Below, one piece after another: positions 8,200 to 26,742 of a stretch of DNA of 64,000 bases. A model generated the notes under the pieces. It searched no databases. It saw only the letters and a list, made by a program, of their open reading frames with translations, and had not been told where the DNA came from. The position numbers were made by a program, and so were the translations under genes. Within the stretch, counting starts at the first letter, position 1. Every line of letters starts with the position of its first letter. Source of the stretch: Limnohabitans sp. (GTDB taxonomy: Bacteria; Pseudomonadota; Gammaproteobacteria; Burkholderiales; Burkholderiaceae_C); assembly GCF_030158565.1 (NCBI RefSeq), contig NZ_JAOASQ010000029.1, positions 62,001 to 126,000 on the forward strand, read 5' to 3'.

Positions 8200-8217
8200 A
8201 TCGTCTGAACAGACGAT
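8200..8217. promoter_or_regulatory. Acyl-CoA region palindrome, copy 1
   Basis: ATCGTC-TGAACA-GACGAT, a perfect 6+6 dyad with a 6-nt spacer. It lies 13 nt after the metH1 stop and 69 nt before the ATG of the CoA-transferase remnant. It is one of six copies of wTCGTC-N6-GACGAw in the 8-27 kb region. Confidence 0.75.
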
Positions 8218-8285
8218 GTGCAGCCGCTAGCGCTGCGGCACCATGACCCTCAGAACGCGCCCTCTGGCGCACAAGAGGTGGATGC

Positions 8286-8411
8286 ATGGCGGGACCGCTG
8301 ACAGGCATGAAGGTGATCGAGATGGCCGGGATCGGCCCGGGGCCGTTTTTGTGCCATGGTGCTGGCCGACCTGGGGGCCGATGTGGTGCGCGTTGGCAAG
8401 CAACAGATTGA
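8286..8411 (+). pseudogene. Remnant of a family III CoA-transferase / alpha-methylacyl-CoA racemase
   Basis: The first 21 codons (MAGPLTGMKVIEMAGIGPGPF) match the N-terminus of the AMACR/CaiB family. After a run of five T at 8346-8350 the match continues in the next frame as CAMVLADLGADVVRV. One extra base in that homopolymer therefore breaks the frame. The family normally has about 380 residues. Here similarity stops after about 40 codons and the enoyl-CoA hydratase gene begins, so most of the gene has been deleted. A ribosome-binding site (AGAGGT) and palindrome copy 1 remain upstream, suggesting the lost gene once headed this operon. Confidence 0.8.
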
Positions 8412-8420
8412 AAGCCCCCC

Positions 8421-9209
8421 ATGCAAGACATCCTCGATATCCAGCAAGACGGCGGCGTTCTGCGCCTGACCATGAACCGCCCCGAGCGGCTCAACGCTTT
8501 GAACCCCGCGCTGGCCACGGCATTGCGCGAGTGCTTTCAGGGCTTGTACCGGCGCACCGACATCCGCGTGGTCATCCTGCAAGGGGCGGGGCTCAGCTTT
8601 TGCGCGGGCCTGGACCTCAAAGAGCAACCCGGCCAGGACCTGGGCACCAGCGACATGCTGGCGGTGCAGTACAGCATCCGCGACATCATGCTGGCCATGC
8701 GGCGCTGCCCGCAGCCCATCATCAGCATCGTGCAGGGCGCGGCCAGTGGTGGCGGCTTTGCGCTGGCGCTGGCCTCCGACATCCGGCTGGCCACGCCCGA
8801 CGCCCGCATGAACGCTTCGTTCCTGCGCATCGGGCTCACGGGCTGCGACATGGGCGTGAGCTATTTCCTGCCGCGCATGGTGGGCAGTTCGGTGGCAGCG
8901 CAGTACCTGCTGACCGGTCGCTTCATGGACGCGGCGCGTGCACATGCCCTGGGGCTGGTGAGCACGGTGGCCCCCTTGAGCGAGCTGCAGCAGGAGGCGC
9001 AGGCCCTGGCTGAAGACATGCTGCGCACCACGCCGCTGGGGCTGCGCTTGACCAAAGAGGCCTTGGGTCTGAGTCTGGACATGGGCAGCCTCGAAGCCGT
9101 CATGGCCATGGAAGACCGCCAGCAGGTGCTGTGCACCCAGACTGAAGACTTTCAGGAAGGCCTGCAGGCCTTTTTGCAAAAACGCCCGCCGCACTACAGC
9201 GGTCAATGA
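8421..9209 (+). CDS. Enoyl-CoA hydratase/isomerase family protein
   Basis: A crotonase-fold enzyme of 262 residues, probably hydrating or isomerising an enoyl-CoA thioester in beta-oxidation. The oxyanion-hole segments are visible as FCAGLDLKEQPG near residue 65 and VQGAASGGGFALALASDIRLA near 105-125. A family-typical FLRIGLTGCDMGVSYFLPRM block follows. The substrate cannot be read from the sequence. The gene starts at the edge of the CoA-transferase remnant, with a poor ribosome-binding site. It is followed 29 nt later by the frameshifted SDR, and the two were probably one operon. This is the first of three crotonases in the region. Confidence 0.85.
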   Translation: MQDILDIQQDGGVLRLTMNRPERLNALNPALATALRECFQGLYRRTDIRVVILQGAGLSFCAGLDLKEQPGQDLGTSDMLAVQYSIRDIMLAMRRCPQPIISIVQGAASGGGFALALASDIRLATPDARMNASFLRIGLTGCDMGVSYFLPRMVGSSVAAQYLLTGRFMDAARAHALGLVSTVAPLSELQQEAQALAEDMLRTTPLGLRLTKEALGLSLDMGSLEAVMAMEDRQQVLCTQTEDFQEGLQAFLQKRPPHYSGQ

Positions 9210-9238
9210 TGCCTCACCGACACTTTGGAGAACACGCG

Positions 9239-10125
9239 ATGACACTGGACGATCTGATCTACAAACCCGGTTTGCTGGCGGGCCAGCGCGTGCTGGTCAC
9301 GGGCGGGGGCACGGGCCTGGGCCGCGTGATGAGCGAGGCCCTGCTGCTGCTCGGGGCTGAAATCCACATCTGCGGGCGACGTGGCGCGGTGGTCGAGCAA
9401 ACCGCCAGCGAGTTGATGGCCCAGCACGGCGACGCTTGGTGCCCTGGGTGTGCGACATCCGCAGCGACGAAGCGATCCAGGCCATGCTCGACAACATTTG
9501 GCAAACGCACGGCCCGCTGGACGGGCTCATCAACAACGCGGCGGGCAACTTTGTGAGCCGCACCGAAGACCTGTCGTCGCGGGCCTTTGATGCGATTGCC
9601 AACATCGTGTTCCGCGGCAGCTTCTACATGACGCTCGAATGCGGCAAGCGCTGGCTGGCCGAGGGGCGCAAAGCGTCGGTGATTTCCATCCTCACCACCT
9701 GGGTGTGGAACGGCTCGGCCTTCACCGTGCCTTCGGCCATGGCCAAGGCCGGGCTGCATGCCATGACCCAGTCGCTGGCGGTCGAGTGGGGCGGGCGCGG
9801 CATCCGCCTGAACGCCATCGCGCCCGGCCTGTTCCCGACCGAGGGCATGAGCGCGCGCCTGAACCCGGGCGGTGGCGAGCACAAGGCTGAGCGCAACCCG
9901 ATGGGCCGCACCGGCCGCATGCCTGAGCTGGCCAACCTGGCCGTGTTCCTGATGGGGCCTGGTTCGGAGTATCTCAACGGCCAGACGATCGCCATCGACG
10001 GTGCGCAGTACCAGGCCACGGGTGGCAACTTTGCACACTTGGTCAGCTGGAGCGATGCCGATTGGCAACACGCCCGCCAGAACATTGAAAAAACCAACGC
10101 GACCGACCGCCGCAAGCGGCTGTAG
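9239..10125 (+). pseudogene. SDR oxidoreductase, 2,4-dienoyl-CoA reductase-like, frameshifted
   Basis: The N-terminal part has the Rossmann motif LVTGGGTGLGR. The remainder, one frame earlier, has INNAAGNFVSRTEDLSSRAFD and SAMAKAGLHAMTQSLAVEWGGRGIRLNAIAPG. The change of frame falls near 9431-9440 (about codon 65) and is explained by loss of a single base. Joined, the two parts would give about 295 residues, the normal length. Pro replaces the Tyr of the usual SDR YxxxK motif (PSAMAK), as in 2,4-dienoyl-CoA reductase-like SDRs, so auxiliary beta-oxidation of unsaturated acyl-CoA is likely. GGAG stands 9 nt before the ATG at 9239. An assembly error is possible, because the rest is well conserved. 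Confidence 0.75.
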
Positions 10126-10183: not shown

Positions 10184-10196
10184 AAAAGAGGTGCCT

Positions 10197-12884
10197 TTAG
10201 CCGATCAGCCCCAGCCGCCGCGCAATCGCCACGGCCTGGGTGCGGCTGTGGGCGTCGAGCTTCATGTTGATGTTGCGCAAGTGGGTGCGCACTGTGCTGT
10301 CCGAGACGTAAAGTTTCTCCGCCATGGCGCTGTTGGAGTAGCCCTCCACCAGCAACTGCAACACCCGGATTTCCTTGCGCGTGAGGGGCTCCAGGGGGCC
10401 TTGGGCGGGCGCTGGCATTTTGTCCACATCGACCGGCAGCGGACCGAAGGCCTGCACCAAGCGTTGCAGGTAGTCGCCCATCAGCGGGTCGCGCACCGCA
10501 CGGCTGTTGTGCTGTGCCAGGCAGCGCTGCACCAGCGCACCCAGGGCAGGGCCCTCGTCGATGATCTGCCGCATGAAGCCTTCCTGGCAGGCCCATTGCA
10601 GCGCAGTGCCCAGCGTGGACAAGGCCGCCGGTGTGTCCCCCAAGCGCTGCAGCGCCAGTGCACGTAGCAGGCGCAAGCTCAGCACCCGGCGCTGGCGTGA
10701 GGCGGCCACGGCGGCGTCCAGTTCGGCATCCGCTTGCCGCAGGGCGCGTGCGGCGTCGCCAAAGGCGGTCTCCCAGCGGATGCGGGCCAGCGCCAGGTAT
10801 TCGATGTCGTTGGCCAGGAGGCGCTGGTCTTGTTCGCGTTGCCACACGGCGGGGTCATTGGCCCGTTCCAGCTCGTCGTGTGCGGCGCTGCCGTGGCCTT
10901 GCAGCAGCAACAGGCGTGCCCTTTCAAGTTTGGCGGTGGCCACCACACGCGGCAGTTTGCGCTGGTGGCCCAGGTATTCCAGCTCGGTGAGGGCTTGCCA
11001 CGCGGCGTCCACATCGCCCTGGATGAAGGCGATGCGCGAGCGCATGGCGTGGCTCAGGATCATGTGGTCGGGCAGCCCCACGTCGCGGGCCACCGGCAAA
11101 TAGACGTTGAGCAGGTGGTCCGCTTCATCGAGCGCGTTGGCTTCGTAGACGATGCTGGCGTACAGCACCCCGGCCCAGGCGTTGCCGTGGGTGTGCAGCA
11201 GGTTCACCGCGTGGGTGGCGTCCACCGCCAGCCGAAAGCGCGCACTGGCCTGGCGCAGGCGGCCTTGCTGCAAGTCCAGCAAGCCCTCGGTGGATTCGCT
11301 GTACATGCGGTTGAAGGTGCTGTTGTCGCTGTGCTGCTTTTTGGCCGCATCCAGCAACATTTGGGCTTGTTTGGGGTGTCCGGTCATGGCGGTGGTGTGG
11401 GCCATGGCATTTAACAATGTGGTGATGGCGAAACAGTTGCCCGCTGGCAAACAGTCCAGAGCTTTGCGACCAGCTGCAATGGCTTCTTCTTTTCGGTCCT
11501 GCATGGCCAGCAGCAGCGGACGCACACACATGGCATCGTTTTTGAAGCGTTCATCGTGCACGCCGCTGGCTTCTTGTTGCTCCAGCAAGTTCATGGCGCT
11601 GAAGGATCCGTGTGTGAAGCTTGTCGCCCAGATTGCGGCCATCACCAGACGCGGGCGCTGCCGCAGCTCGGCGGCAGGCAGGCTGCTGCACCAGCGGTAC
11701 AGCATGCGCATGCGGCCTTGCTCCAGAAAGTCTTCTGCATGTTGCTCCAGCAATTGCATGGCCAGCGGAAAGTCACCGCCTTCGATGGCGTGTTCGATCG
11801 CGGGCACCGGGCGACCTTGTGATTCGTACCAGCCCGAGGCCGCCAAGTGCAGCCGGGCCACATCGTCCGCAAACTCTTTGTGCAACTGCTGGCGCAGGTG
11901 GTCGGCAAACAGGCTGTGGTATCGCCAGGTGGGCAGCTCGCTGGCCACGGGCGTCAAAAACAGGTGGTCGGTGTCCAGCTGTTGCAAGAGGGCTGCGCAA
12001 TCGGCATGGGGGTTGAGTGCCGCGCACACCGAGGCGTCGAGTTGCCTGAGGATGCTGGTGCGCAGCAAAAAACGGCGGATGTGAGCAGGTTGGCGGGCCA
12101 GCACATCTTCGGCCAGGTAGTCGGCCACAGCCCGGTTGGAGCCCGAAAATCGCGTCACAAAATCTTCCGGATCGACCGCGCCGTCCAGCGCCATGGCCGC
12201 CAGCCAGAGGGCGGCGACCCAGCCTTCGGTTTTTTCGTGCAGGCGAAACAGCTGGTCGGCGCTGAGTTTGTGGGGGTGCGGGCGCTGCTCAAAAAACCGA
12301 GCAGTGTCTTGCAGGCTGAAGCGCAGACGCTCGGCGTCGATCTCGATCAATTGCCCACGCACCCGCAATCGCGCCAGGCCAATCTGCGGCAGGCCGCGCG
12401 AGCCAATCACCAGCAAGCCTTGGCGCGGCAGGTTGTGCGCAATCTCGCGCACGATGCTCAGCAGCGATGCCTCGTGGATGGCTTCGAATTCGTCCAGAAA
12501 CAGTGCAAATGGTGTGTCGATGCGCGACAAGGCTTGCACCGTGTCGTTGCCCGGCAGGCCCAGTTGCCGCACGGCGGTGTCCAGGCAGTTCAGAAAACGC
12601 GAGACGTCGTTGTCGGCCCGGTCCAGTGTCAGCCAAGCGGTGGCCACGCCTGCATCTTCCAGGCGCACACGCGCTTGCATCATGGCGGTGGTCTTGCCAA
12701 AACCAGCCGGGGCGCGCACCAGCACCAGTTGTCCTGCACCCCGGCAGATCGTCTCGCAAAGGCCTGCACGCGCCACCTGCGAGGCGTCGTGTGCGGGCGG
12801 ATTGAACTTGCTTTCCAGCCCCAGCGTGATCGAACTCGCTGAAACGGGGGGTGTCAGGTTGTCGGGTTCGAATGGGGCGGGCAT
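10197..12884 (-). CDS. LuxR-family transcriptional regulator, MalT/AlkS-like STAND ATPase
   Basis: A large 895-residue signal-transduction ATPase with a DNA-binding C-terminus. Walker A is APAGFGKTT at residues 58-66. A Walker B-like FALFLDEFEAIHE follows near 130. The middle is a long helical, TPR-like sensor region. The last 65 residues are a LuxR helix-turn-helix, LTRKEIRVLQLLVEGYSNSAMAEKLYVSDSTVRTHL. This architecture and length match MalT, AlkS and AcoK. It is divergent from fadB, and one of the six acyl-CoA-region palindromes lies between them, 126 nt upstream of its start. That makes it the obvious candidate to control the neighbouring catabolic genes, perhaps in response to an acyl-CoA or a hydrocarbon derivative as AlkS does. 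This role is inference. Confidence 0.85.
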   Translation of the reverse strand: MPAPFEPDNLTPPVSASSITLGLESKFNPPAHDASQVARAGLCETICRGAGQLVLVRAPAGFGKTTAMMQARVRLEDAGVATAWLTLDRADNDVSRFLNCLDTAVRQLGLPGNDTVQALSRIDTPFALFLDEFEAIHEASLLSIVREIAHNLPRQGLLVIGSRGLPQIGLARLRVRGQLIEIDAERLRFSLQDTARFFEQRPHPHKLSADQLFRLHEKTEGWVAALWLAAMALDGAVDPEDFVTRFSGSNRAVADYLAEDVLARQPAHIRRFLLRTSILRQLDASVCAALNPHADCAALLQQLDTDHLFLTPVASELPTWRYHSLFADHLRQQLHKEFADDVARLHLAASGWYESQGRPVPAIEHAIEGGDFPLAMQLLEQHAEDFLEQGRMRMLYRWCSSLPAAELRQRPRLVMAAIWATSFTHGSFSAMNLLEQQEASGVHDERFKNDAMCVRPLLLAMQDRKEEAIAAGRKALDCLPAGNCFAITTLLNAMAHTTAMTGHPKQAQMLLDAAKKQHSDNSTFNRMYSESTEGLLDLQQGRLRQASARFRLAVDATHAVNLLHTHGNAWAGVLYASIVYEANALDEADHLLNVYLPVARDVGLPDHMILSHAMRSRIAFIQGDVDAAWQALTELEYLGHQRKLPRVVATAKLERARLLLLQGHGSAAHDELERANDPAVWQREQDQRLLANDIEYLALARIRWETAFGDAARALRQADAELDAAVAASRQRRVLSLRLLRALALQRLGDTPAALSTLGTALQWACQEGFMRQIIDEGPALGALVQRCLAQHNSRAVRDPLMGDYLQRLVQAFGPLPVDVDKMPAPAQGPLEPLTRKEIRVLQLLVEGYSNSAMAEKLYVSDSTVRTHLRNINMKLDAHSRTQAVAIARRLGLIG

Positions 12885-13009: not shown

Positions 13010-13027
13010 TTCGTCGCTTAAGACGAT
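13010..13027. promoter_or_regulatory. Acyl-CoA region palindrome, copy 2
   Basis: TTCGTC-GCTTAA-GACGAT, in the divergent region between the LuxR regulator and fadB, 67 nt before the fadB start codon. It would lie inside a longer reading of fadB from 12984, which supports the start at 13095. Confidence 0.75.
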
Positions 13028-13094
13028 GCCACGCCAGTGGCAACTTTTTAGACTGAAGCCAAGACGGTACCGTGCCGCCATCAGGAGAGTTGCA

Positions 13095-15248
<2,154 letters not shown>

Positions 15249-15266: not shown

Positions 15267-16049
15267 ATGAAACTCGATTCACAAGTGACCGCCGTCATCA
15301 CCGGCGGGGCCTCGGGCCTGGGCGCGGCTACGGCGAGGCAACTGGCCAGCCATGGCGTCAAGGTGGCCTTGTTTGACCTGAACGAGGCGCAGGGCGAAGC
15401 CCTGGCCCAAGAGCTGGGGGGCATCTTTTGCAAAGTCGATGTGACCTCCGAAGAGCAGGTCGATGCCGGGTTTGCCAAAGCGCGTGCGGCGCTGGGCCAG
15501 GAGCGCATCCTGGTCAATTGCGCAGGCACGGGCAACGCCATCAAGACGGCCAGCCGCGACAAAGCCACGGGCGAAATCCGGTCCTTCCCCACCGCCAACT
15601 TTGACCGCATCATCCAGATCAACCTGGTGGGCACTTTCCGCTGCATTGCCAAGTCGGCCGCAGGTATGCTGACCCTCACGCCGCAAGAAGACGGTGAGCG
15701 CGGCGTGATCATCAACACCGCCTCGGTGGCCGCCCAAGACGGCCAGATGGGCCAGGCCAGCTACTCGGCCAGCAAGGCGGGCATCGTGGGCATGACGCTG
15801 CCCATTGCCCGCGACCTGATGGGCGACGGCATCCGCGTCAACACCATCTTGCCCGGCATCTTCAACACCCCGCTGCTGCAAGCCGCGCCCGACAACGTCA
15901 AGGCCGCGCTGGCCGCGACCGTGCCTTTCCCCAAACGCCTGGGCGAGCCGCCCGAATACGCCCACCTGGCCGAAACCCTGATCACCAACCGCTACCTCAA
16001 CGGCGAGTGCATCCGCATCGACGGGGCCATCCGCATGGCACCGCGCTGA
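15267..16049 (+). CDS. 3-hydroxyacyl-CoA dehydrogenase type II (SDR family)
   Basis: A 260-residue short-chain dehydrogenase resembling HSD17B10/FadB2-type 3-hydroxyacyl-CoA dehydrogenases, which often accept short or branched acyl-CoAs. It has ITGGASGLGAATARQL near residue 11, VNCAGTGNAIKTASRDK near 85 and catalytic YSASKAG near 164. The C-terminus INTASVAAQDGQ...GIRVNTILPGIFNTPLL is typical of that subgroup. AGGAGA precedes the ATG. It duplicates the dehydrogenase activity of FadB, so the two may serve different chain types. It probably shares a transcript with fadB. Confidence 0.9.
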   Translation: MKLDSQVTAVITGGASGLGAATARQLASHGVKVALFDLNEAQGEALAQELGGIFCKVDVTSEEQVDAGFAKARAALGQERILVNCAGTGNAIKTASRDKATGEIRSFPTANFDRIIQINLVGTFRCIAKSAAGMLTLTPQEDGERGVIINTASVAAQDGQMGQASYSASKAGIVGMTLPIARDLMGDGIRVNTILPGIFNTPLLQAAPDNVKAALAATVPFPKRLGEPPEYAHLAETLITNRYLNGECIRIDGAIRMAPR

Positions 16050-16088: not shown

Positions 16089-16106
16089 ATCGTCTGTTCT
16101 GACGAT
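16089..16106. promoter_or_regulatory. Acyl-CoA region palindrome, copy 3
   Basis: ATCGTC-TGTTCT-GACGAT, a perfect dyad 60 nt upstream of the thiolase start. It implies a separate promoter for the thiolase-transporter operon. Confidence 0.75.
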
Positions 16107-16166
16107 GTGGGTGGGCGGGTGTGGACACCAGAATGACCTTCATTGGCCAACTTTCGGGAATACAAC

Positions 16167-17345
16167 ATGTCTGAAGCATTCATCGTTGCCGCCACCCGCA
16201 CCGCAGGCGGGCGCCGGGGCGGGCGCCTGTCCGGCTGGCATCCGGTTGATCTGGCGGCGCAGGTCCTGAACGACTTGGTGGACCGCACCGGGGCCGATCC
16301 GGCGCTGATCGAGGACGTGTTCATGGGTTGCGTGAGCCAGGTGGGCGAGCAATCCACCAACGTGGCGCGCAATGCGGTGCTGGCCTCGCGCCTGCCCGAG
16401 TCGGTGCCCGGCACCTCGATTGACCGGCAGTGCGGCTCGTCGCAACAGGCGGTGCACTTTGCGGCCCAGGCCGTCATGTCGGGCGCGATGGACATCGTGA
16501 TCGCGGCGGGCGTCGAGTCCATGACGCGGGTGCCCATGTTCAGCCCGTCTGCGCTGGCCTCCAAGGCCGGCATGGGTTCTTACCAAAGCGATTGGGTCAA
16601 CCAGCGTTACAACAACGTGGCCTTCAGCCAGTTTGTGGGCGCCGAGATGATGGCCCGCAAATACGGTCTGAGCAAAGACGAGCTGGACCGTTACGCCTTG
16701 CTGAGCCACCAGCGTGCCCTGGCCGCGACCCAGGCGGGCGCATTCAAGAACGAAATTTTGCCCGTGGCGGTGCGCACCGCAGACGGGTCCGCATCGGGCG
16801 AAATGCACACGGCTGACGAAGGCATCCGCGCCGAAGCGTCGCTGGAGAGCATCCAGAGTGTCAAATTGCTGCAAGAAGGCGGCGTCATCACCGCTGCCAA
16901 TGCCAGCCAAATTTGCGACGGCGCGACCGGGGTGATGATCGTCAACGAGCGGGGCCTGAAGGCCTTGGACGTGCAGCCCCTGGCCCGCATCCACCACATG
17001 ACCATGATCGGCCACGACCCGGTCATCATGCTCGAAGCCCCCATCCCGGCCACCGAGCGGGCCCTGAAAAAAGCGGGCATGAAGATCGACGAGATCGACC
17101 TGTACGAGGTCAACGAAGCCTTTGCCTCGGTGCCGCTGGCCTGGCTCAAGGCGCTGGGGGCCGACCCGGCGCGCCTGAACGTCAACGGCGGTGCGATCGC
17201 GCTGGGTCACCCGCTGGGTGCTTCGGGCACCAAGCTCATGACCACCCTCGTGCACGCGCTGGCTCAGCGCGGCAAGCGCTACGGCCTGCAGACCATGTGC
17301 GAAGGCGGCGGCATGGCCAACGTGACCATCATCGAGCGCCTGTGA
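16167..17345 (+). CDS. fadA: Acetyl-CoA C-acyltransferase (3-ketoacyl-CoA thiolase)
   Basis: Thiolytic cleavage of 3-ketoacyl-CoA, the last step of beta-oxidation. The 392-residue thiolase has the nucleophilic cysteine in SIDRQCGSSQQAVHFA near residue 89. The histidine is in GGAIALGHPLGASGTK near 347 and the second cysteine in MCEGGGMANV near 378. The ATG at 16167 has a GGGAA-type ribosome-binding site. The stop codon shares one base with the ATG of the next gene, an ABC transporter ATPase (TGATG). The thiolase is thus translationally tied to an uptake system, suggesting that import and degradation of the same acid are coupled. Confidence 0.93.
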   Translation: MSEAFIVAATRTAGGRRGGRLSGWHPVDLAAQVLNDLVDRTGADPALIEDVFMGCVSQVGEQSTNVARNAVLASRLPESVPGTSIDRQCGSSQQAVHFAAQAVMSGAMDIVIAAGVESMTRVPMFSPSALASKAGMGSYQSDWVNQRYNNVAFSQFVGAEMMARKYGLSKDELDRYALLSHQRALAATQAGAFKNEILPVAVRTADGSASGEMHTADEGIRAEASLESIQSVKLLQEGGVITAANASQICDGATGVMIVNERGLKALDVQPLARIHHMTMIGHDPVIMLEAPIPATERALKKAGMKIDEIDLYEVNEAFASVPLAWLKALGADPARLNVNGGAIALGHPLGASGTKLMTTLVHALAQRGKRYGLQTMCEGGGMANVTIIERL

Positions 17346-18148: not shown

Positions 18149-18861
18149 GCACGTTGCTGGAAGTGCGCGACCTGCATGCGCGTTATGGAAACACCCAAGT
18201 GCTGCACGGTCTGAACCTGGATGTGGCCGAGGGCCAGGTCACGGCCTTGCTGGGCGCCAACGGTGCGGGCAAGACCACCACCTTGCGGGCGCTGTGCCAG
18301 CTGATGGTGCAGACCACCGGCAGCATCACCCTCGAGGGCGTGGCCTTGAACAGCCGCAACACCGAACAGATCGCCCGCCTGGGTGTGGGCCATGTGCCCG
18401 ATGGGCGCGGCACCTTCATGGCGCTGAGCACCGAAGAAAACCTGCGCCTGGGCGCTTTCAGCCGCGCCAGCCGAGAGGGCTTGGCGCAGGACATGGACAA
18501 GGTCTACGGCTACTTTCCCCGGCTGCGTGAGCGGGCCAGCCAGCAGGCGGGCACCTTGTCGGGCGGTGAACAACAAATGCTGGCGATTGGCCGCGCCCTG
18601 ATGGGCAGGCCCCGTTTGTTGTTGCTGGATGAGCCCTCGTTTGGTTTGGCCCCGCTGGTGGTCAAGGACATTTTTGCCATCATGCGGCGCATCAACCAGG
18701 AGGAAAAAGTTTCCATCCTGTTGGTCGAGCAAAACGCCAAGCTGGCGCTGGACATTGCCGACACCGCTTACCTGCTGGAAACCGGACGCGTGGTGTTGCA
18801 CGGCTCGTCCAGTGACATGCGCAGCAACGATGCGGTGCGCCGCGCCTATCTGGGCGAATAA
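18145..18861 (+). CDS. livF: Branched-chain-type ABC transporter ATP-binding protein LivF
   Basis: The second ATPase of the Liv-type importer, 238 residues. It has Walker A GANGAGKTT near residue 37, the family motif VPDGRGTFMALSTEENLRLGAF, signature LSGGEQQMLAIGRALM and Walker B LLLLDEPSFGLAP. The C-terminus ends VRRAYLGE, as LivF proteins do. It overlaps livG by ATGA and is 11 nt before the permease gene livH. Confidence 0.93.
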   Translation: MSTLLEVRDLHARYGNTQVLHGLNLDVAEGQVTALLGANGAGKTTTLRALCQLMVQTTGSITLEGVALNSRNTEQIARLGVGHVPDGRGTFMALSTEENLRLGAFSRASREGLAQDMDKVYGYFPRLRERASQQAGTLSGGEQQMLAIGRALMGRPRLLLLDEPSFGLAPLVVKDIFAIMRRINQEEKVSILLVEQNAKLALDIADTAYLLETGRVVLHGSSSDMRSNDAVRRAYLGE

Positions 18862-18872
18862 GGGATTGACCG

Positions 18873-19745
18873 ATGAATGAATTGCTGCACCAAACACTCT
18901 CGGGCCTGGCCACTGGCGGTATTTATGCCAGTGTGGCGCTGGCCCTGGTGATGATTTACCAAGCCACACACCACATCAATTTCGCGCAAGGCGAGATGGC
19001 CATGTTCTCCACCTTTCTGGCCTGGATGCTGCTGGACGCGGGGCTGCCGTATTGGGGGGCTTTTGCCTTGACGGTGCTGCTGTCTTTTGTGCTGGCGGCA
19101 GCCATCGAGTTTGCGGTCATTCGGCCCATGCACAAGGCGCCGGAGTTGTCGGTGGTGGTGGTCTTCATCGGCTTGCTGGTGATCTTCCACAGCCTGGCGG
19201 GCTGGCTGTTTGGTTACACCATCAAGACCTTCCCCAGTCCTTTTCCGGCAGGGGCCTGGTATGGCTCGCAGCTCATGTCGGCGCACGAGGTGGGGGCCAT
19301 TTTTGTGGCGCTGGTCATGGTGGCTTTGCTGTTTTCGTTTTTCCGTTTCACACCGCTGGGCTTGGCCATGCGGGCTGCCGCGCAAAACGCCAACTCGTCA
19401 CGCTTGGTGGGCATTTCGGTCGGGCGCATGCTGATGCTGGGCTGGGGCCTGGCCGGCGCCATTGGCGCCGTGGCCGGGATGATGGTGGCCCCTGTGGTGT
19501 TTCTGGACCCCAACATGATGACCGGCGTTTTGCTCTATGCCTTTGCCGGTGCGCTGATTGGTGGCATCGACAACCCGGTGGGCGCGGTCTTGGGCGGCTT
19601 CATTGTGGGCGTGCTGGAAAACCTGATGGGCAGCTATGTGGTGGGCACCGAGCTCAAACTGACGGTGGCGCTGGTGCTGATCGTGGGGGTGTTGATCGTG
19701 CGGCCCTCGGGCCTGCTCGGCAAAAAAATTGTGACGAGGGTCTGA
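18873..19745 (+). CDS. livH: Branched-chain-type ABC transporter permease LivH
   Basis: An inner-membrane permease of 290 residues with about eight hydrophobic segments. It begins with the family pattern LLHQTLSGLATGGIYASVALALVMIYQ and has the conserved NFAQGEMAMFSTF. It contains the EAA-like region GLAMRAAAQNANSSRLVGI near residue 165. Two glycine-rich segments follow, and it ends RPSGLLGKKIVTRV. It is co-transcribed with livF and livM. Confidence 0.92.
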   Translation: MNELLHQTLSGLATGGIYASVALALVMIYQATHHINFAQGEMAMFSTFLAWMLLDAGLPYWGAFALTVLLSFVLAAAIEFAVIRPMHKAPELSVVVVFIGLLVIFHSLAGWLFGYTIKTFPSPFPAGAWYGSQLMSAHEVGAIFVALVMVALLFSFFRFTPLGLAMRAAAQNANSSRLVGISVGRMLMLGWGLAGAIGAVAGMMVAPVVFLDPNMMTGVLLYAFAGALIGGIDNPVGAVLGGFIVGVLENLMGSYVVGTELKLTVALVLIVGVLIVRPSGLLGKKIVTRV

Positions 19746-19748
19746 ACC

Positions 19749-20756
19749 ATGAAACCGAGTGCGACCCTGAACGCCTCTTTGCCGACGGCCATTGCCGGTT
19801 TGTCTGAGCGCACCGTCAAAGCCGGTTTGCTGGTGCTGCTGATCCTGGCCGTAGGCCTGGCCTTTGTGGCCAAAGGCTACCAGCTGTTCCAGGCCACCAT
19901 GGTGGTGGCCTATGCGATCGCGCTGGTGGGCCTGAACATGCTGACCGGCTACAACGGCCAGATTTCGCTGGGCCACGGGGCCTTCTTTGCGCTGGGGGCC
20001 TATGTCACCGGCATCTTGATGGAACACGCCGCTGTGCCTTATTGGGCCACGTTGCCTACAGCGGCTGTGGTGTGTTTGTTGGTGGGTTACCTGTTTGGTC
20101 GACCCGCGCTCAAGCTCGAAGGCCTGTACCTGGCGCTCGCCACCTTTGCGCTCGGCGTGGCCATGCCGCAGTTGCTGAAATACAAACACCTCGAAGCCTG
20201 GACCGGTGGTGTGCAAGGCATTGTCTTGATGAAGCCCGATGCGCCTTGGGGTCTGCCGCTCACGCAAGACCAATGGCTGTACCTGTTTGCCCTGGCGGTG
20301 GCGGTGGTGATGTTCTGGATCGCGCACAACCTGCTGCAAAGCGGCACGGGCCGGGCCATGCGGGCCATCCGCGACCATGCCATGGCAGCCGAAGCCATGG
20401 GTGTGGACAACCGGCACTACAAGTCCATGACCTTTGGCGTGTCGGCTGCTTACACCGGCGTGGGCGGCGCCCTGTCGGCGATTGCGGTGCAGTTTGTCTC
20501 GCCCGATTCGTTCACCCTGTTCTTGTCCATCTCTTTGCTGGTGGGCATTGTGGTGGGTGGCGTGGGCACGCTGTGGGGCGCTTTGTATGGCGCCATCTTC
20601 ATCATGTTCGTGCCCAACCTGGCCGAAAAAGTCTCCAAGGCCGCGCCTTGGGCGGTGTATGGCGTGGTGCTGATCTTGTTGATGTTTGTCATGCCCGGCG
20701 GCGTGGTGGGTTTGCTGCGCAAGCTGCAGGCCTGGCGTGCTGCCCGAAGCCATTGA
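19749..20756 (+). CDS. livM: Branched-chain-type ABC transporter permease LivM
   Basis: The second permease, 335 residues, with multiple membrane segments. It shows the LivM motif LNMLTGYNGQISLGHGAFFALGAY near residue 60 and the coupling-helix region GRAMRAIRDHAMAAEAMGVD near 200. A further YKSMTFGVSAAYTGVGGALSA block follows. It begins 3 nt after livH. With LivG, LivF and LivH it forms a complete translocator; the binding protein is encoded two genes further on. Confidence 0.92.
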   Translation: MKPSATLNASLPTAIAGLSERTVKAGLLVLLILAVGLAFVAKGYQLFQATMVVAYAIALVGLNMLTGYNGQISLGHGAFFALGAYVTGILMEHAAVPYWATLPTAAVVCLLVGYLFGRPALKLEGLYLALATFALGVAMPQLLKYKHLEAWTGGVQGIVLMKPDAPWGLPLTQDQWLYLFALAVAVVMFWIAHNLLQSGTGRAMRAIRDHAMAAEAMGVDNRHYKSMTFGVSAAYTGVGGALSAIAVQFVSPDSFTLFLSISLLVGIVVGGVGTLWGALYGAIFIMFVPNLAEKVSKAAPWAVYGVVLILLMFVMPGGVVGLLRKLQAWRAARSH

Positions 20757-20771: not shown

Positions 20772-21572
20772 ATGGCCGATGAACACCCGATCCTGCTGGA
20801 GCGCCAAGGCGATGTGGCCTGGCTGCGCCTGAACATCCCGCAACGCCTGAATCCTTTGGCGCAAACGTTGCAAGTGGCCCTGCGCGAGCAATTGGCCGCC
20901 CTGCGCGAAGACCGCTCGGTGCGGGCGCTGGTCATCACCGGCGTGGGCAAGGCCTTTTGCGTGGGGGCTGATTTGGGCAGCATGCGGCCGCCTTCTGACC
21001 AAAGCCTGGGCGAGCAAACGGCCGACGCGATGGAGGCCCTGTCCAACCGCCTGATCGAAGACATCCGCAGCTTGCCTTTTCCGGTGGTGAGCGCGGTCAA
21101 CGGCCCTTGCGCGGGCGCGGGTGTGGGTGTGGCGCTGGCCGCCGACGTGGTGGTGGCGGCGCAGTCGGCTTACTTTTATTTGCCCTTCATGCCGCGTCTG
21201 GGCATCGTGCCGGACCTGGGCAGCACCTGGTTTTTGCAGCGCTCGGCTGGGCGTGCACGGGCTGTGGGCCTGAGCTTGCTGGGCGATCGTTTGCCTGCCC
21301 AGCAGGCCCTGGACTGGGGTTTGATCTGGGCTTGTGTCCAAGATGATCAACTGGCTGAACAGGCCCAAGCGCTGGCACAGCGTCTGGCGCAGTTGCCCGC
21401 CCATGCGGCGCAGGAAATCCGGCGCACCTACGACCACGCCGAAAGTGCCAGCTTGCAAGCGCAGCTGTACTACGAGGCCTCGCGCCAGCGCGAGCTGATC
21501 GATCGGCCCGAATTTTCTGAAGGTGTGCGGGCTTTCCTGGAAAAACGCGAGCCCAAGTTCCCGCCGCGCTGA
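20772..21572 (+). CDS. Enoyl-CoA hydratase/isomerase family protein
   Basis: The second crotonase of the region, 266 residues. The oxyanion-hole segments are FCVGADLGSMRP near residue 70 and VNGPCAGAGVGVALAADVVVAA near 110. The conserved LGIVPDLGSTWFLQR block follows, with Asp in the usual PaaG/isomerase position. An active-site role in isomerisation (PaaG-like) is therefore as likely as hydration. TTGGAGA lies just upstream of the ATG. It closes the thiolase-liv operon, 15 nt after livM. Confidence 0.85.
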   Translation: MADEHPILLERQGDVAWLRLNIPQRLNPLAQTLQVALREQLAALREDRSVRALVITGVGKAFCVGADLGSMRPPSDQSLGEQTADAMEALSNRLIEDIRSLPFPVVSAVNGPCAGAGVGVALAADVVVAAQSAYFYLPFMPRLGIVPDLGSTWFLQRSAGRARAVGLSLLGDRLPAQQALDWGLIWACVQDDQLAEQAQALAQRLAQLPAHAAQEIRRTYDHAESASLQAQLYYEASRQRELIDRPEFSEGVRAFLEKREPKFPPR

Positions 21573-21584: not shown

Positions 21585-21602
21585 ATCGTCAGTTCCGACG
21601 AT
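21585..21602. promoter_or_regulatory. Acyl-CoA region palindrome, copy 4
   Basis: ATCGTC-AGTTCC-GACGAT, 12 nt after the crotonase stop and 111 nt before the binding-protein gene. It is the most distant copy from its start codon. Confidence 0.7.
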
Positions 21603-21713
21603 GCTCTGTACTGGGCAGCTTTCTACGATGGCATGGACTCTGGCGTCATGCTTCTTTGACGGGTTGTGATGCTGGGGTTCGATTTCTTTTCTTCATAAAA
21701 ATCAGGAGACAAC

Positions 21714-22940
21714 ATGTCCAAATCTTTTGATGCCGGTCTGCGCCGGTCCCTCAAACTCGGTGCCGGCATGTTGCTGGCCAGCGCTTTCCCCTTGGTGTCG
21801 CATGCCCAGAAAAAATACGACCCCGGTGCCAGCGATACCGAAATCAAGCTCGGCAACCTGAACCCGTATTCCGGCCCCGCCTCGGCCTACGGCACGGTGG
21901 GCAAAGCCATGCAGGCCTACTTTGACAAGGTCAATGCCACAGGCGGCGTGAATGGCCGCAAGATCAACTTCATGACGTTGGACGATGCCTACAACCCGGC
22001 CAAGTCGGTGGAGCAGACCCGCAAGCTGGTCGAGCAAGACGAGGTGCTGCTCATGTTCGGCTCGTTGGGCACGGCGCAAAACATCGCGGTGCAGCGTTAC
22101 CTCAACGCCAAAAAAATCCCCCAGCTGTTCATCAACACGGGCGCCACCCGCTTTGGCGACCCCAAGACCAACCCCTGGACTATGGGCTGGCAGCCCACCT
22201 ACCAGGCCGAAGGCCGCTTGTATGCCAAGCACATTCTGCAGACCAAGCCCAACGCCAAAATTGGTGTGCTGATGCAAAACGACGACTTCGGTAAGGACTA
22301 CATGAAGGGCCTGCTCGATGGGCTGGGCGACAAGGCCAAGACCATGGTCACCCAGCACCTGACTTACGAGGTGAGCGACCCCACGATCGACAGCCAGATG
22401 GTGACGCTCAAGTCCGCAGGCTGCGATGTGTTCGTGAGCATCACCACACCCAAGTTCGCGGCCCAGGCGATTCGCAAAGCTGCTGAGATCGGTTGGAAGC
22501 CCACCCAGTACCTGGTGAGCGTGTCGCAGTCGGCCAGTTCCGTGCTCAAGCCTGCGGGGCTTGAAAACGCGGTGGGCATCATCTCTTCCACCTACTTGCT
22601 GACCCCCTTGGACCCTGCGGCTGCGGGCAACAAGGACGCGGCCGAATACGCCGCGACCATGAAGCAGTACTACCCATCGGGCGACCCTGAAGATACCCTC
22701 AATGCCAACGGCTATTCGACAGCCGCAACCATGGTGCAGGTGCTGCGCATGGCGGGCGACAACCTCACGCGCGAAAACATCATGAAGCAGGCGGCCAACA
22801 TGAATTTCACACCGCCCATGTTGTACCCCGGCATCGACATCAAGACCACGCCCGACGATTTCTTCCCGATCCAGAAGAAGGCACTGCAACGCTTCAACGG
22901 CAAGACCTACGAAACCATCCTTCAGGCCACCGCCGGTTGA
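21714..22940 (+). CDS. Liv-type ABC transporter substrate-binding protein
   Basis: A periplasmic binding protein of 408 residues (Peripla_BP_6 family) for the Liv-type importer encoded just upstream. A signal peptide is visible: LRRSLKLGAGMLLASAFPLVSHAQ. The mature part begins with KLGNLNPYSGPASAYGTVG. It also has NYSG-like and DDAYNPAKSVEQTRKLVEQDEVLLMFGSLGT motifs typical of amide/organic-acid binders. AGGAGA precedes the ATG. A separate palindrome upstream suggests strong independent expression, as usual for binding proteins. The ligand is unknown; an acid later activated by the adjacent CoA ligase is the best guess. Confidence 0.9.
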   Translation: MSKSFDAGLRRSLKLGAGMLLASAFPLVSHAQKKYDPGASDTEIKLGNLNPYSGPASAYGTVGKAMQAYFDKVNATGGVNGRKINFMTLDDAYNPAKSVEQTRKLVEQDEVLLMFGSLGTAQNIAVQRYLNAKKIPQLFINTGATRFGDPKTNPWTMGWQPTYQAEGRLYAKHILQTKPNAKIGVLMQNDDFGKDYMKGLLDGLGDKAKTMVTQHLTYEVSDPTIDSQMVTLKSAGCDVFVSITTPKFAAQAIRKAAEIGWKPTQYLVSVSQSASSVLKPAGLENAVGIISSTYLLTPLDPAAAGNKDAAEYAATMKQYYPSGDPEDTLNANGYSTAATMVQVLRMAGDNLTRENIMKQAANMNFTPPMLYPGIDIKTTPDDFFPIQKKALQRFNGKTYETILQATAG

Positions 22941-22998: not shown

Positions 22999-24639
<1,641 letters not shown>

Positions 24640-24695: not shown

Positions 24696-25805
24696 TCAGA
24701 AAATGATCATGCCCCGGGCATTGCGTCCTTGAGCCAGGTCGTCAAAGGCCTGAGGGGCTTCTGCCAGTGTGTAACGGTGGGTGATGAGTTCGTCCAGTTT
24801 CAGCTTGCCACTGCTGTAGAGCGACATCAGGCGCGGGAAGTCTTCGCGTGGTCGTGCAGACCCGTAGTAGCTGCCTTTGAGTGTTTTTTCTTCCAGCGTG
24901 AGCGAAACGGTTTTGAGCGTGGTGGTGTCTTGCATGCCTGCAACGCCAACAACCACGGCGGTGCCGCCTTTGCGCAAGGCGCCATAAGCCTGCGCCACCA
25001 CGCTGCCCAGGCCCACGCACTCAAACGCATAGTCTGCGCCGCCACCGGTCAGCTTTTTCAAGGTCTTGACCAGGTTGTCCTCCGCCGCTGCATTGACCGT
25101 GTGGGTGGCACCAAACAAGCGGGCCATGGCCAGTTTGTGATCCGAGCGGTCAACTGCAATGACCATGGCCGCGCCCGCGATGGCACAACCCTGAATGGCG
25201 TTCAGGCCCACCCCTCCGGCACCGAAGACCACGGCGATCGAGCCCGCCGTCAGCTTGGCTGTGTTGACCACAGCCCCCACGCCGGTCATGACACCACAGC
25301 TGATGAGGGCACAACAGTCCATGGGAATGTCGGGTCGATCCACCTTGATCACATTGTCCATGTGCAGCGTGGCGTACTCGGACATCACGCCGCAGCCGCA
25401 CAAAATGTTCAAGGGCAGACCTGCCATGTCGTGGGTGCGGACGGTGCCGTCGGGCAAGGTGAATGCTGTACGGGCATTCTGGTCGCACAGTTGCGGCTGG
25501 CCCGTCATGCAATACCGGCAATGCCCGCACATGCTGACAAAAGACGTGATCACGCGGTCACCGACTGCCAGCCCTTTGACGCCTTCGCCCAAGGCCACGA
25601 CATGACCTGCGCCTTCATGACCGAGCACGACCGGGGGTGGCAGCGGAATGATGCCTTTGGCGGTCGACAAGTCGCTGTGGCATACGCCACAGGCTTGCAT
25701 CTTGATCATCACCTCGCCATGCTGCGGGGGGTCGACCCAGATGTCTTCAACGGTGACGGTGCCCGTGTTGTCGCGGGCAATGACGGCGCGTGATTTTTGT
25801 CGCAT
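24696..25805 (-). CDS. Zinc-dependent alcohol dehydrogenase, class III-like MDR
   Basis: A medium-chain dehydrogenase of 369 residues. The catalytic-zinc region is CGVCHSD near residue 38 with GHEGAGHV near 63. The structural-zinc cysteines are CGHCRYCMTGQPQLC near 93-107. The nucleotide-binding loop is VFGAGGVGLNAIQG near 190. It resembles the class III/NDMA-dependent group rather than simple ethanol dehydrogenases. It probably oxidises an alcohol that feeds the same acyl pathway with the aldehyde dehydrogenase at 26801. A palindrome copy lies 74 nt upstream of its start. Confidence 0.88.
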   Translation of the reverse strand: MRQKSRAVIARDNTGTVTVEDIWVDPPQHGEVMIKMQACGVCHSDLSTAKGIIPLPPPVVLGHEGAGHVVALGEGVKGLAVGDRVITSFVSMCGHCRYCMTGQPQLCDQNARTAFTLPDGTVRTHDMAGLPLNILCGCGVMSEYATLHMDNVIKVDRPDIPMDCCALISCGVMTGVGAVVNTAKLTAGSIAVVFGAGGVGLNAIQGCAIAGAAMVIAVDRSDHKLAMARLFGATHTVNAAAEDNLVKTLKKLTGGGADYAFECVGLGSVVAQAYGALRKGGTAVVVGVAGMQDTTTLKTVSLTLEEKTLKGSYYGSARPREDFPRLMSLYSSGKLKLDELITHRYTLAEAPQAFDDLAQGRNARGMIIF

Positions 25806-25878
25806 GGGGTTCTCGCTGATGAGGGTATGCAGGCGCTAGGGTGCCTCGAATATTTTCAGCAGTGCGGCTGGCGATAGC

Positions 25879-25896
25879 ATCGTCGCTTGCGACGAA
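25879..25896. promoter_or_regulatory. Acyl-CoA region palindrome, copy 5
   Basis: ATCGTC-GCTTGC-GACGAA, located 73 nt upstream of the alcohol dehydrogenase start and 3 nt from the stop of the crotonase gene. The last base deviates from the perfect dyad. Confidence 0.7.
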
Positions 25897-25899
25897 TTC

Positions 25900-26667
25900 T
25901 CAATCTTGCTGACGTGCACGCAGTCTGACGGCGCTGCTGCTATCGGACAGTGAGGCCGCGCTCAGTTGTCGGGCCCATGCCTGACTGCGCTGCTGCTCCA
26001 GGACCAGGGCCTCGCCCATGGGCAATTTGTAGCCGTCCCCAATCAGGCGTTTGTAGGCTTGTGCCATCTCCGGGGGCGCCGTGGCGATGTCCTTGGCCAA
26101 AGCGAAGGTTTGTTCATCCAAGGTGTCGTTGGGGACGCATCGGTTGATCAGCCCCCAGCGTTCTGCCTGGGCTGCACCCATGAAGTTGCCACTCATGGAC
26201 AACTCCATGGCCCTGGCCTGACCGACAAGTCGACTCAACTTCTGTGAAAGCCCCCATCCTGGCAAGACGCCCATTCGCACATGGGTGTCGGCAAACCGGG
26301 CGCTGCTGCTGGCCAGAACCATGTCGCAAGCCAATGCCAGCTCCAAACCACCCGTGACGGCCACACCCTGAACGGCTGCGATGGTGGGCCAGGGCATGGC
26401 CGCCAGAGCGGCCACCGGATCGTTGTGCAGTCCCGAAAGCGGCAGCCCATGTGTGGACAGCTCTTTCAGGTCCAGTCCTGCGCAAAATGTCTGATTCGCG
26501 CCTCTCAACACCAGCACGCGAACGCGGCTGTCTTTGGCCAGCTGTTGCAACAACTGCACCAGCGCCTCACGCAGCGCACTGTTCAGTGCGTTCATGACCT
26601 CGGGCCGATTCAAGGTCACCGTGGCGATGCCGTGTTCGGATTGCTCCAGCAAAAGAATGTTTGACAT
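25900..26667 (-). CDS. Enoyl-CoA hydratase/isomerase family protein
   Basis: The third crotonase of the region, 255 residues. The oxyanion-hole segments are FCAGLDLKELSTHG near residue 63 and VQGVAVTGGLELALACDMVLAS near 100. MGVLPGWGLSQKLSRLVG follows, with features of EchA-type hydratases. The start at 26667 (MSNILLLEQSEHG) is chosen because the crotonase fold begins there; upstream open sequence would cross the palindrome. It is divergent from the aldehyde dehydrogenase and followed by the alcohol dehydrogenase 94 nt later on the same strand. Base composition looks less GC-rich than in the operons to the left. Confidence 0.85.
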   Translation of the reverse strand: MSNILLLEQSEHGIATVTLNRPEVMNALNSALREALVQLLQQLAKDSRVRVLVLRGANQTFCAGLDLKELSTHGLPLSGLHNDPVAALAAMPWPTIAAVQGVAVTGGLELALACDMVLASSSARFADTHVRMGVLPGWGLSQKLSRLVGQARAMELSMSGNFMGAAQAERWGLINRCVPNDTLDEQTFALAKDIATAPPEMAQAYKRLIGDGYKLPMGEALVLEQQRSQAWARQLSAASLSDSSSAVRLRARQQD

Positions 26668-26724
26668 CGTGAATCCTGTGGTGTTCGTGAAGGACCCAGT
26701 GTGCAGGACATTCAGCCTTTCAAA

Positions 26725-26742
26725 TTCGTCGATTTGGACGAC
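26725..26742. promoter_or_regulatory. Acyl-CoA region palindrome, copy 6
   Basis: TTCGTC-GATTTG-GACGAC, midway between divergent genes: 57 nt from the crotonase start and 58 nt from the aldehyde dehydrogenase start. It could control both. It is the weakest copy, with one half-site ending in C. Confidence 0.65.

What the first reader, a model, noticed from the sequence alone, without database searches (positions are those of the whole stretch)
8200..26742. Six copies of one 18-bp palindrome define an acyl-CoA regulon
wTCGTC-N6-GACGAw occurs at 8200, 13010, 16089, 21585, 25879 and 26725, each in an intergenic gap and each before an acyl-CoA gene or operon. Five lie 57-73 nt from a start codon and one 111 nt. 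The spacer is always 6 nt while its sequence varies, as expected for a protein dimer site. I saw no copy in the rest of the window. The sites tie together the CoA-transferase remnant, fadB, thiolase-liv, the binding protein-CoA ligase operon, the alcohol dehydrogenase and the divergent crotonase/aldehyde dehydrogenase pair. No TetR, GntR or MerR gene is in the region. The AlkS/MalT-like LuxR gene beside copy 2 is the local candidate, but a distant regulator is possible.
Basis: partly seen in the sequence, partly recalled or inferred. Interest (0 to 1): 0.78.

Follow-up and report, generated by a model that had tools for sequence, protein, structure and literature searches.

The report
A LuxR-type activator's acyl-CoA regulon
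Six copies of a short DNA palindrome in a freshwater bacterium mark promoters that a neighbouring MalT-like regulator most likely switches on together to take up and break down a carboxylic acid; most related bacteria with this regulator carry the same sites at the same distance from the promoter, while those without it lack the site at the matching promoter.

Summary
TCGTC-N6-GACGA is present at all six places; five match the 18-mer exactly and 26725 misses its last base. Two corrections apply. The spacer is not free: its centre is AA/TT in all six and in none of the genome's nine other arm matches. A -10-like hexamer also lies a fixed 21-22 nt beyond the site: in all seven window promoters and in 34 of 36 non-redundant promoters; the commonest single offset holds 22, against at most 8 in 2000 shuffles. 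That centres the site near -42.5, over the -35, where a class II activator binds.

The regulator is very probably the MalT-like LuxR (LAL) gene at 10197-12884. Upstream of thiolase orthologues the site is present in 10 of 11 genomes with this regulator and 0 of 16 without it. Of 90 genus genomes, only the four with a close orthologue have more than one refined site. One 52% homologue has no site near it (G358).

It is a new regulon and operator for a known regulator type. Effector and substrate are unknown; nothing was tested at the bench.

The parts
8200..8217 (+). operator copy 1, ATCGTCTGAACAGACGAT, before the CoA-transferase remnant / enoyl-CoA hydratase genes
   Evidence: corresponding site in G070, G067, G104
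8239..8244 (+). -10-like hexamer CACCAT, 21 nt beyond copy 1
8286..8420 (+). CoA-transferase (CaiB family III) remnant: N-terminus only, then frame lost; intact ~1.1 kb gene in G070
   Evidence: three-frame reading; intact relative L099:10039-11124 is CoA_transf_3
8421..9209 (+). enoyl-CoA hydratase (ECH1)
   Evidence: Pfam ECH_1
9436..10125 (+). SDR, best NCBIfam match 2,4-dienoyl-CoA reductase (below cut-off); start not settled
10197..12884 (-). MalT-like LuxR (LAL) regulator, 895 aa: P-loop NTPase region, MalT TPR region, C-terminal GerE HTH; most likely the protein that binds the sites
   Evidence: Pfam TPR_MalT and GerE above cut-off; MalT structure 8bob E 2.4e-39; co-occurrence
13010..13027 (-). 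operator copy 2, before fadB, between luxR and fadB
13049..13054 (+). -10-like hexamer TAGACT for fadB, 21 nt beyond copy 2
13095..15248 (+). fadB (enoyl-CoA hydratase / 3-hydroxyacyl-CoA dehydrogenase)
   Evidence: NCBIfam NF008727 above cut-off
15267..16049 (+). SDR dehydrogenase (3-hydroxyacyl-CoA/3-oxoacyl type)
   Evidence: Pfam; NCBIfam matches below cut-off
16089..16106 (-). operator copy 3, before thiolase-liv operon
16129..16134 (+). -10-like hexamer CAGAAT, 22 nt beyond copy 3
16167..17345 (+). acetyl-CoA C-acyltransferase (thiolase)
   Evidence: Pfam, NCBIfam NF005077 above cut-off
17342..20756 (+). livG, livF, livH, livM: branched-chain-amino-acid-type ABC transporter
   Evidence: Pfam, livG and livM, livF and livH; conserved in relatives
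20772..21572 (+). enoyl-CoA hydratase/isomerase (ECH2)
21585..21602 (-). operator copy 4, before the binding protein-CoA ligase operon
21624..21629 (+). -10-like hexamer TACGAT, 21 nt beyond copy 4
21714..22940 (+). periplasmic binding protein of the liv-type transporter
   Evidence: Pfam Peripla_BP_6
23002..24639 (+). acyl-CoA ligase, passes the cut-off of NCBIfam NF005426 (3-(methylthio)propionyl-CoA ligase)
24696..25805 (-). zinc alcohol dehydrogenase
   Evidence: Pfam
25852..25857 (-). -10-like hexamer GAAAAT for the alcohol dehydrogenase, 21 nt beyond copy 5
25879..25896 (-). operator copy 5, before the alcohol dehydrogenase
25900..26667 (-). crotonase (ECH3)
26698..26703 (-). -10-like hexamer CACACT for ECH3, 21 nt from copy 6
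26725..26742 (-). operator copy 6 (last letter off consensus), shared by the divergent ECH3 and aldehyde dehydrogenase promoters
26764..26769 (+). -10-like hexamer CAAAAT for the aldehyde dehydrogenase, 21 nt from copy 6
26801..28216 (+). aldehyde dehydrogenase
   Evidence: Pfam Aldedh 504.7 bits

Best explanation
The six palindromes are operators of one local regulon. The protein that reads them is most likely the MalT-like LuxR (LAL) gene at 10197-12884. As a dimer, or as an ATP- and inducer-driven oligomer, its LuxR-type helix-turn-helix would bind wTCGTC-NN(AA/TT)NN-GACGAw centred near -42.5, in place of a -35 hexamer, and recruit sigma-70 RNA polymerase to the weak -10 that lies 21-22 nt further on (class II activation). 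The inducer is probably the imported acid, its CoA ester or an alcohol precursor. It would then switch on uptake (liv ABC transporter, binding protein), activation (CoA ligase, CoA-transferase where intact), alcohol and aldehyde oxidation (ADH, ALDH) and beta-oxidation (hydratases, FadB, SDR, thiolase) together. Shown here: the sites, the A/T centre, the fixed -10 spacing, the conservation, and the dependence on the regulator gene. Inferred: direct binding, activation rather than repression, inducer and substrate.
For: (a) Sites beyond chance: 5 exact in the window against 0 in 100 shuffles; six clustered in 18.5 kb, with only chance-level arm matches elsewhere in the genome. (b) AA/TT centre in 6 of 6 window sites; in 20 regions around LuxR-gene homologues, window included, 50 of 59 arm matches are AA/TT, 7 AT/TA and 2 other, where about 9-14% A/T-A/T would be expected from base composition of three of the regions. 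(c) Presence test: of 90 genus genomes the four with an orthologue of 90% or more have 5, 4, 4 and 5 refined sites, all within about 15 kb of the gene; 7 of the other 86 have one site each and 79 none. In 399 order genomes, 9 of 9 with a homologue of 45% or more have a site against 70 of 390 others; for two or more sites, 7 of 9 against 9 of 390. (d) Orthologous-promoter test: thiolase orthologues, 10 of 11 with the regulator have the site (at least 11 of 12 letters) within 300 bp upstream, 0 of 16 without it (Fisher 1.3e-6; with the four Limnohabitans counted once, 7 of 8 against 0 of 16, 2.3e-5). (e) Promoter architecture: NANNNT hexamer at offset 21 or 22 in 34 of 36 non-redundant promoters (22 at offset 21, 12 at offset 22), against at most 8 at any one offset in 2000 shuffles; in 24 further sites not used to find this, 21 have it at 20-23 nt on one side or the other, against 5 of 29 chance motif matches scored the same way. 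At those 34 promoters the best TTGACA match 16-18 nt before the -10 has 5 letters in one, 4 in four and 1-3 in twenty-nine, so no good -35 is present in most. (f) The regulator lies inside the cluster, divergent from fadB, and has the LAL domains. (g) The recognition helix is T-[VI]-R-[TS]-H-L-R in all 16 homologues of 40% or more that I aligned and T-V-K in the four most distant, which have no AA/TT-centred site in their regions.
Against: No binding or expression data. G358, with a 52% homologue, has no site within 15 kb of that gene or before its thiolase; its only refined site is before a CoA ligase-hydratase pair on another contig. Site and regulator could be inherited together as one gene cluster; the LuxR-minus thiolase orthologues argue against that as the whole reason, but their surroundings were not studied. 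The genomes are related, so the Fisher values overstate independence. Order searches scored only the two best LuxR candidates per genome, so a few LuxR-minus labels could be wrong; two LuxR-minus thiolase genomes are fragmentary (G081, 77% complete; G401, 410 contigs). Operators of MalT itself are decanucleotides in direct repeat, not a palindrome (PMC6099782, passages read).
Confidence: 0.86

Rival explanations
1. A distant TetR-, GntR- or MerR-type regulator (for example FadP, the TetR regulator predicted for fatty acid degradation in Comamonadaceae) binds the sites and represses the operons.
For: An inverted repeat before acyl-CoA genes is typical of such repressors (general knowledge); FadP is described for Comamonadaceae (PMC5343134, passages read).
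Against: A genus- or family-wide regulator would give sites in most genus genomes; more than one site is seen only in the 4 of 90 with the close LuxR orthologue, and orthologous thiolase promoters without the LuxR gene lack the site in 16 of 16. The site sits at -42.5 with a fixed -10, an activator place, in 34 of 36 promoters. I did not look for FadP or its motif in this genome.
Confidence: 0.07
2. The sites are read by the other LuxR-type protein in the window, the NarL-like response regulator at 30318-30977.
For: It has a receiver domain and a LuxR-type HTH and lies 3.6 kb from copy 6.
Against: By tblastn over the fetched regions it was found only in G104 besides the window; regions of G070, G067, G138 and others with sites show no match. 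It is preceded by a histidine kinase and followed by a gene that looks NrtA-like by eye.
Confidence: 0.02
3. The LuxR-type protein binds the sites but represses, with release by inducer.
For: A site over the -35 can also block polymerase; at least one LAL protein represses (SCO6993, PMC9628970, title and start of abstract in the search listing only).
Against: The position of a -35 is taken by the end of the site and only one of 34 promoters has a 5-of-6 TTGACA there, so a strong promoter to repress is not evident; AlkS is an activator (PMC8784404, passages read) and so is MalT (PMC6099782, passages read).
Confidence: 0.08
4. The palindromes are not operators but a repeat or chance feature of this cluster.
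For: All refined sites of the window's genome lie within 18.5 kb of one contig.
Against: Flanks differ, the centre varies within limits, and orthologous and non-orthologous promoters in several other genera carry the site at the same distance to a -10.
Confidence: 0.01

Closest known systems
MalT (E. coli), prototype of the LAL (large ATP-binding LuxR) regulators
   Same: Size (895 aa against a 903-position model), NTPase region, MalT TPR region and C-terminal GerE HTH; activator (PMC6099782, passages read).
   Different: Below the cut-off of the MalT equivalog (336 against 537 bits). The operator here is a single palindrome, while MalT uses two decanucleotides in direct repeat (PMC6099782, passages read). 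The targets are acyl-CoA genes, not maltose genes.
AlkS of Pseudomonas putida GPo1 / Alcanivorax
   Same: LuxR/MalT-type activator of alkane catabolism with an inverted-repeat operator upstream of the promoter (PMC8784404, passages read); here alcohol and aldehyde dehydrogenases and a CoA ligase are among the targets.
   Different: No alkane monooxygenase was seen among the window genes scanned; the operator there is a 20-bp inverted repeat. AlkS sequence and operator letters were not compared here.
LuxR of Vibrio fischeri and the lux box
   Same: LuxR-type HTH and a palindrome of about 20 bp at -42.5 overlapping the -35 (recalled; the paper searched for it, PMC5601948, did not give the position).
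   Different: Different sensing domain and palindrome letters (recalled); no quorum signal synthase was looked for.
FadP, PsrA, LiuR and LiuQ regulons of Proteobacteria
   Same: Control of fatty acid or branched-chain acyl-CoA degradation (PMC5343134, passages read).
   Different: TetR (FadP, LiuQ) or MerR (LiuR) proteins; this regulon belongs to a LuxR/MalT-type protein found in few species (6 of 90 genus genomes at E 1e-40; 11 of 399 order genomes at E 1e-100).
TeiR/TesR of Comamonas testosteroni
   Same: LuxR-type regulator of a catabolic cluster (PMC6678751, passages read). LuxR-type proteins that I call TeiR-like by size and context lie near the same box in G182, G373 and G333.
   Different: About 417 aa without the MalT region; that they are TeiR orthologues is recalled resemblance, not tested.

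Membership tests
LAL (MalT-type) LuxR regulators | C-terminal LuxR-type (GerE) HTH | tested here: met
   PF00196 60.2 bits against cut-off 23.5, residues 833-888
LAL (MalT-type) LuxR regulators | N-terminal ATP-binding region with Walker A and B | tested here: inconclusive
   APAGFGKTT can be read in the protein and aligns with MalT's SPAGYGKTT; FLDE follows at 130-133. But the classical GxxxxGK[ST] pattern has no match and Pfam NTPase models stay below their cut-offs
LAL (MalT-type) LuxR regulators | About 800-900 aa with MalT-like TPR region | tested here: met
   895 aa, PF17874 119.2 bits against cut-off 45
MalT itself (equivalog) | Score above the NCBIfam MalT cut-off; maltose targets | tested here: not met
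   335.8 against 537 bits; targets are acyl-CoA genes
Class II activator site | Operator centred near -41.5/-42.5 overlapping the -35, fixed spacing to the -10 | tested here: met
   -10-like hexamer at offset 21/22 in 34 of 36 promoters, all seven window promoters; few good -35 hexamers; transcription starts themselves not mapped
Class II activator site | Activation shown in vivo or in vitro | not testable with these tools
   needs bench work
FadP/PsrA-type fatty acid regulon | Motif linked to a TetR regulator | tested here: inconclusive
   the motif follows the LuxR gene, which speaks against it, but FadP and its motif were not searched for
AlkS-type alkane regulon | Alkane monooxygenase among the targets | tested here: not met
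   none among the window genes scanned

The most novel reading that the evidence does not exclude
TCGTC-NN(A/T)(A/T)NN-GACGA at -42.5 is a common operator of LuxR-type activators of CoA-linked catabolism in Burkholderiales. It is read by MalT-like LAL proteins of several acyl-CoA clusters and also by the smaller TeiR/TesR-like LuxR proteins of another catabolic cluster, whose operator is not known to me. One sequence change in the recognition helix (R to K in TVRTHLR) separates proteins that use it from those that do not, and a 43% homologue (G438, contig 1) uses a sister box with GGAT centre. If so, operators and regulons of many uncharacterised catabolic LuxR proteins can be read from sequence.
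Probability: 0.35. Interest if true: 0.62.

Novelty: new member of a known kind. Interest (0 to 1): 0.52.

Why it matters
MalT-like LuxR proteins are large and widespread, and most have no known operator (general knowledge). Here one of them gets an operator with promoter phase, a set of target genes and a negative control from genomes without it, so binding, inducer and substrate can be tested directly, for example in Limnohabitans sp. T6-5 or T6-20, whose genomes carry the system. It also shows how a freshwater genus may control an optional carboxylic-acid pathway that only a few of its species carry (4 of 90 genomes with the close orthologue).

Tried and rejected
Rejected: distant TetR-type control (the motif follows the LuxR gene); the NarL-like response regulator at 30318 (not conserved with the sites in the fetched regions); chance; free spacer. 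A direction given by the AA/TT centre: most promoters have TT on the coding strand, but the window's CoA-transferase, ADH and ECH3 sites and some others have AA, so the centre does not set direction. Autoregulation of luxR: no -10 at 21-22 nt on the luxR side of copy 2, so no class II control of luxR by this rule; G128's luxR side has a TATACT only at 28 nt.

Led nowhere: the three most distant homologues from the genome collection (26-30% identity; Chloroflexi, Spirochaetaceae, Thermoleophilia) show no site with perfect arms and AA/TT centre (the Thermoleophilia locus has two arm matches with other centres). The substrate could not be fixed: the CoA ligase passes the 3-(methylthio)propionyl-CoA ligase cut-off, its best solved relatives are an 'AMP-binding domain protein' (6ihk, 6ijb) and a long-chain acyl-CoA synthetase, and the binding protein matches only general Leu/Ile/Val-type proteins. 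Five G182/G373 cluster proteins gave no steroid family above its cut-off (two no match, one 423 bits against 825 for BaiCD, one amidohydrolase below cut-off, one isocitrate lyase). Literature searches for the motif letters or a LAL regulon of this kind found nothing (open-access PMC papers, listings only; one search was badly posed, as 'palindrom' cannot match as a whole word; one search asked for four spellings of the motif and found no paper).

Counting choices: one search counts the 52% homologue G358 as having a site because of one on another contig, counts G438's second gene (AT centre) as having the site, and counts G207's TA-centred match without -10 as none. In one search, 48 rows became 45 (three luxR-direction rows dropped) and then 36 (rows with 70% or more identity over 50 nt collapsed); the 48 rows were picked by me from the site list, not all sites. 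Of the 24 further sites, six are from genomes without the MalT-like regulator (G182 three, G373 two, G187 one); the three failures are G128 4732, G438 contig 13 and G187. The first version of the thiolase upstream test ignored strand and is replaced.


Full report
Observation. Five copies match wTCGTCN6GACGAw exactly and the shuffles give none. The sixth at 26725 has perfect arms with one outer letter off. The gaps to start codons are 57-73 nt and once 111 nt. In the whole 3.05-Mb genome, TCGTCN6GACGA occurs at 15 places, six of them here. The reversed control pattern gives nine, the same number as the remaining matches, so those nine are at chance level. None of the nine has an AA/TT centre (letters), while all six window sites do. 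Five of the nine lie in an ORF that passed a crude coding filter; four were not resolved. With one mismatch in the refined motif four further places appear, control 1; they were not followed.

The genes. The sites stand before a CoA-transferase remnant plus enoyl-CoA hydratase, fadB-SDR, thiolase-livGFHM-hydratase, binding protein-CoA ligase, alcohol dehydrogenase, and the divergent crotonase and aldehyde dehydrogenase. The CoA-transferase keeps only its N-terminus here; G070 has a whole gene at that place. Two relatives, G104 and G138, also carry an acyl-CoA dehydrogenase in the cluster; in G104 it is divergent from the ADH with a site between. So the pathway looks like uptake, CoA activation and beta-oxidation of a carboxylic acid, with an alcohol/aldehyde entry. 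Which acid is not known.

The candidate regulator. The 895-aa protein at 10197-12884 has the MalT TPR region and a LuxR-type HTH above Pfam cut-offs and aligns with the MalT structure 8bob (E 2.4e-39). It is not MalT itself (336 against 537 bits). Named relatives are Limnohabitans sp. T6-5 and T6-20 and a Comamonadaceae MAG (90-92%), another Comamonadaceae MAG (78%) and an Aquabacterium MAG (58%). All five have sites in their loci, before the same kinds of genes.

Does the motif follow the regulator? In 90 genus genomes, the four with an orthologue of 90% or more have 5, 4, 4 and 5 refined sites, each within about 15 kb of the gene; seven others have one site each and 79 none. Two further genus genomes have distant homologues (40% and 28%); the 40% one has one off-consensus site (ATCGTCGGAACGGACGAG) before a gene that resembles the CoA ligase at 27%, the 28% one none. 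In 399 order genomes, all nine with homologues of 45% or more have a refined site, against 70 of 390 others; two or more sites, 7 of 9 against 9 of 390. Two of those nine others, G182 and G373, are discussed below. The two more distant homologues at E 1e-100 (G207, G247) have none.

Orthologous promoters. Thiolase orthologues were found in 27 genomes (5 of 90 genus genomes; 23 of 399 order genomes; the window's genome is in both). Within 300 bp upstream (266 in one), 10 of the 11 with the LuxR gene have the site (nine perfect at 12 of 12, one 11 of 12) and none of the 16 without it exceeds 9 of 12. Counting the four Limnohabitans as one, it is 7 of 8 against 0 of 16. The exception, G358 (52% homologue), has its one refined site before a CoA ligase-hydratase pair on another contig. 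Of five refined sites far from the regulator in carriers that I fetched, four lie before pathway-type genes: that one, binding protein-binding protein-CoA ligase (G438), SDR-CoA ligase (G402), and a DctP-type binding protein beside a hydratase (G328); the fifth (G438 contig 13) does not.

Promoter architecture. Sequences downstream of 48 site-gene pairs that I picked were lined up on the site. A -10-like hexamer starts 21 or 22 nt beyond the 18-mer. After dropping three luxR-direction rows and collapsing near-duplicates, 34 of 36 have A at position 2 and T at position 6 there; the single offset 21 holds 22, and no offset in 2000 shuffles holds more than 8. Taking the hexamer as -12 to -7, the site is centred at -42.5 or -43.5 and covers the start of the -35, which is the class II activator place (the term and the LuxR precedent are recalled). 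Good -35 hexamers are rare there: best TTGACA match 5 letters in one, 4 in four, 1-3 in twenty-nine of the 34; this is slightly above shuffled sequence. In 24 further sites, 21 have the hexamer at 20-23 nt on one side or the other, against 5 of 29 chance motif matches scored the same way. Copy 6 has a fitting -10 on both sides, so one palindrome could serve both divergent genes.

Specificity. Sixteen homologues read T-[VI]-R-[TS]-H-L-R in the recognition helix. Four read T-V-K (26-37% identical), and these have no AA/TT-centred site in their regions (G207 has one TA- and one TG-centred match). Of the sixteen, G358's is the one without a site in its region, and a second G438 gene (43%) has three sites with an AT centre near it instead. 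This fits the HTH of this protein reading the box, but the sixteen are related by descent.

A possible second user. G182 has three refined sites in 30 kb, with a 417-aa LuxR-type protein among them and no MalT-like homologue at E 1e-100. G373 and G333 have related proteins (35-47%) with boxes within 1.4 to 33 kb of one or two of them, mostly with the same -10 phase; a second such gene in G182 has no box nearby, and two further ones in G373 only one-mismatch matches. They resemble TeiR/TesR of Comamonas testosteroni in kind; identity with it was not tested, and the steroid nature of the clusters was not confirmed.

Judgement. It is ordinary in kind (a LuxR/MalT-type catabolic activator) and new in its operator, phase and target set as far as the searches reach (open-access PMC papers only, listings). 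Direct binding, inducer and substrate remain to be shown.

Noticed in passing
8286-8420: CoA-transferase remnant: only the N-terminus of a family III CoA-transferase is left and its frame is lost; an intact copy exists at this place in G070.
   Followed up: partly
L105-L107 (G182), L113, L114, L180, L181 (G373), L174 (G333): A 417-aa-type LuxR protein (TeiR/TesR-like in kind, by recall) lies near the same box, mostly with the same -10 phase, in three genomes; a second such gene in G182 has no box nearby.
   Followed up: partly
L087, L088 (G438 contig 1): A 43% homologue of the regulator has three sites with the same arms but an AT centre (GGATGC/GGATAC), perhaps a sister operator.
   Followed up: partly
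26698-26769: One palindrome with a fitting -10 at exactly 21 nt on both sides, for two divergent genes.
   Followed up: yes
7140-8186: The homocysteine S-methyltransferase part of methionine synthase is a gene of its own (Pfam); in G070 a large second gene that looks by eye like the rest lies about 18 kb away.
   Followed up: no
G000:C63:34942-34959 and many genus genomes: ATCGTCATCATTGACGAA recurs in genus genomes; in the window's genome it lies inside a long reading frame that looks by eye like an amino acid decarboxylase: probably a coding-sequence match, not an operator.
   Followed up: partly
29086-32722: Histidine kinase, NarL-like response regulator and a gene that looks NrtA-like by eye next to the cluster; among the regions searched they were found beside it only in G104.
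   Followed up: no
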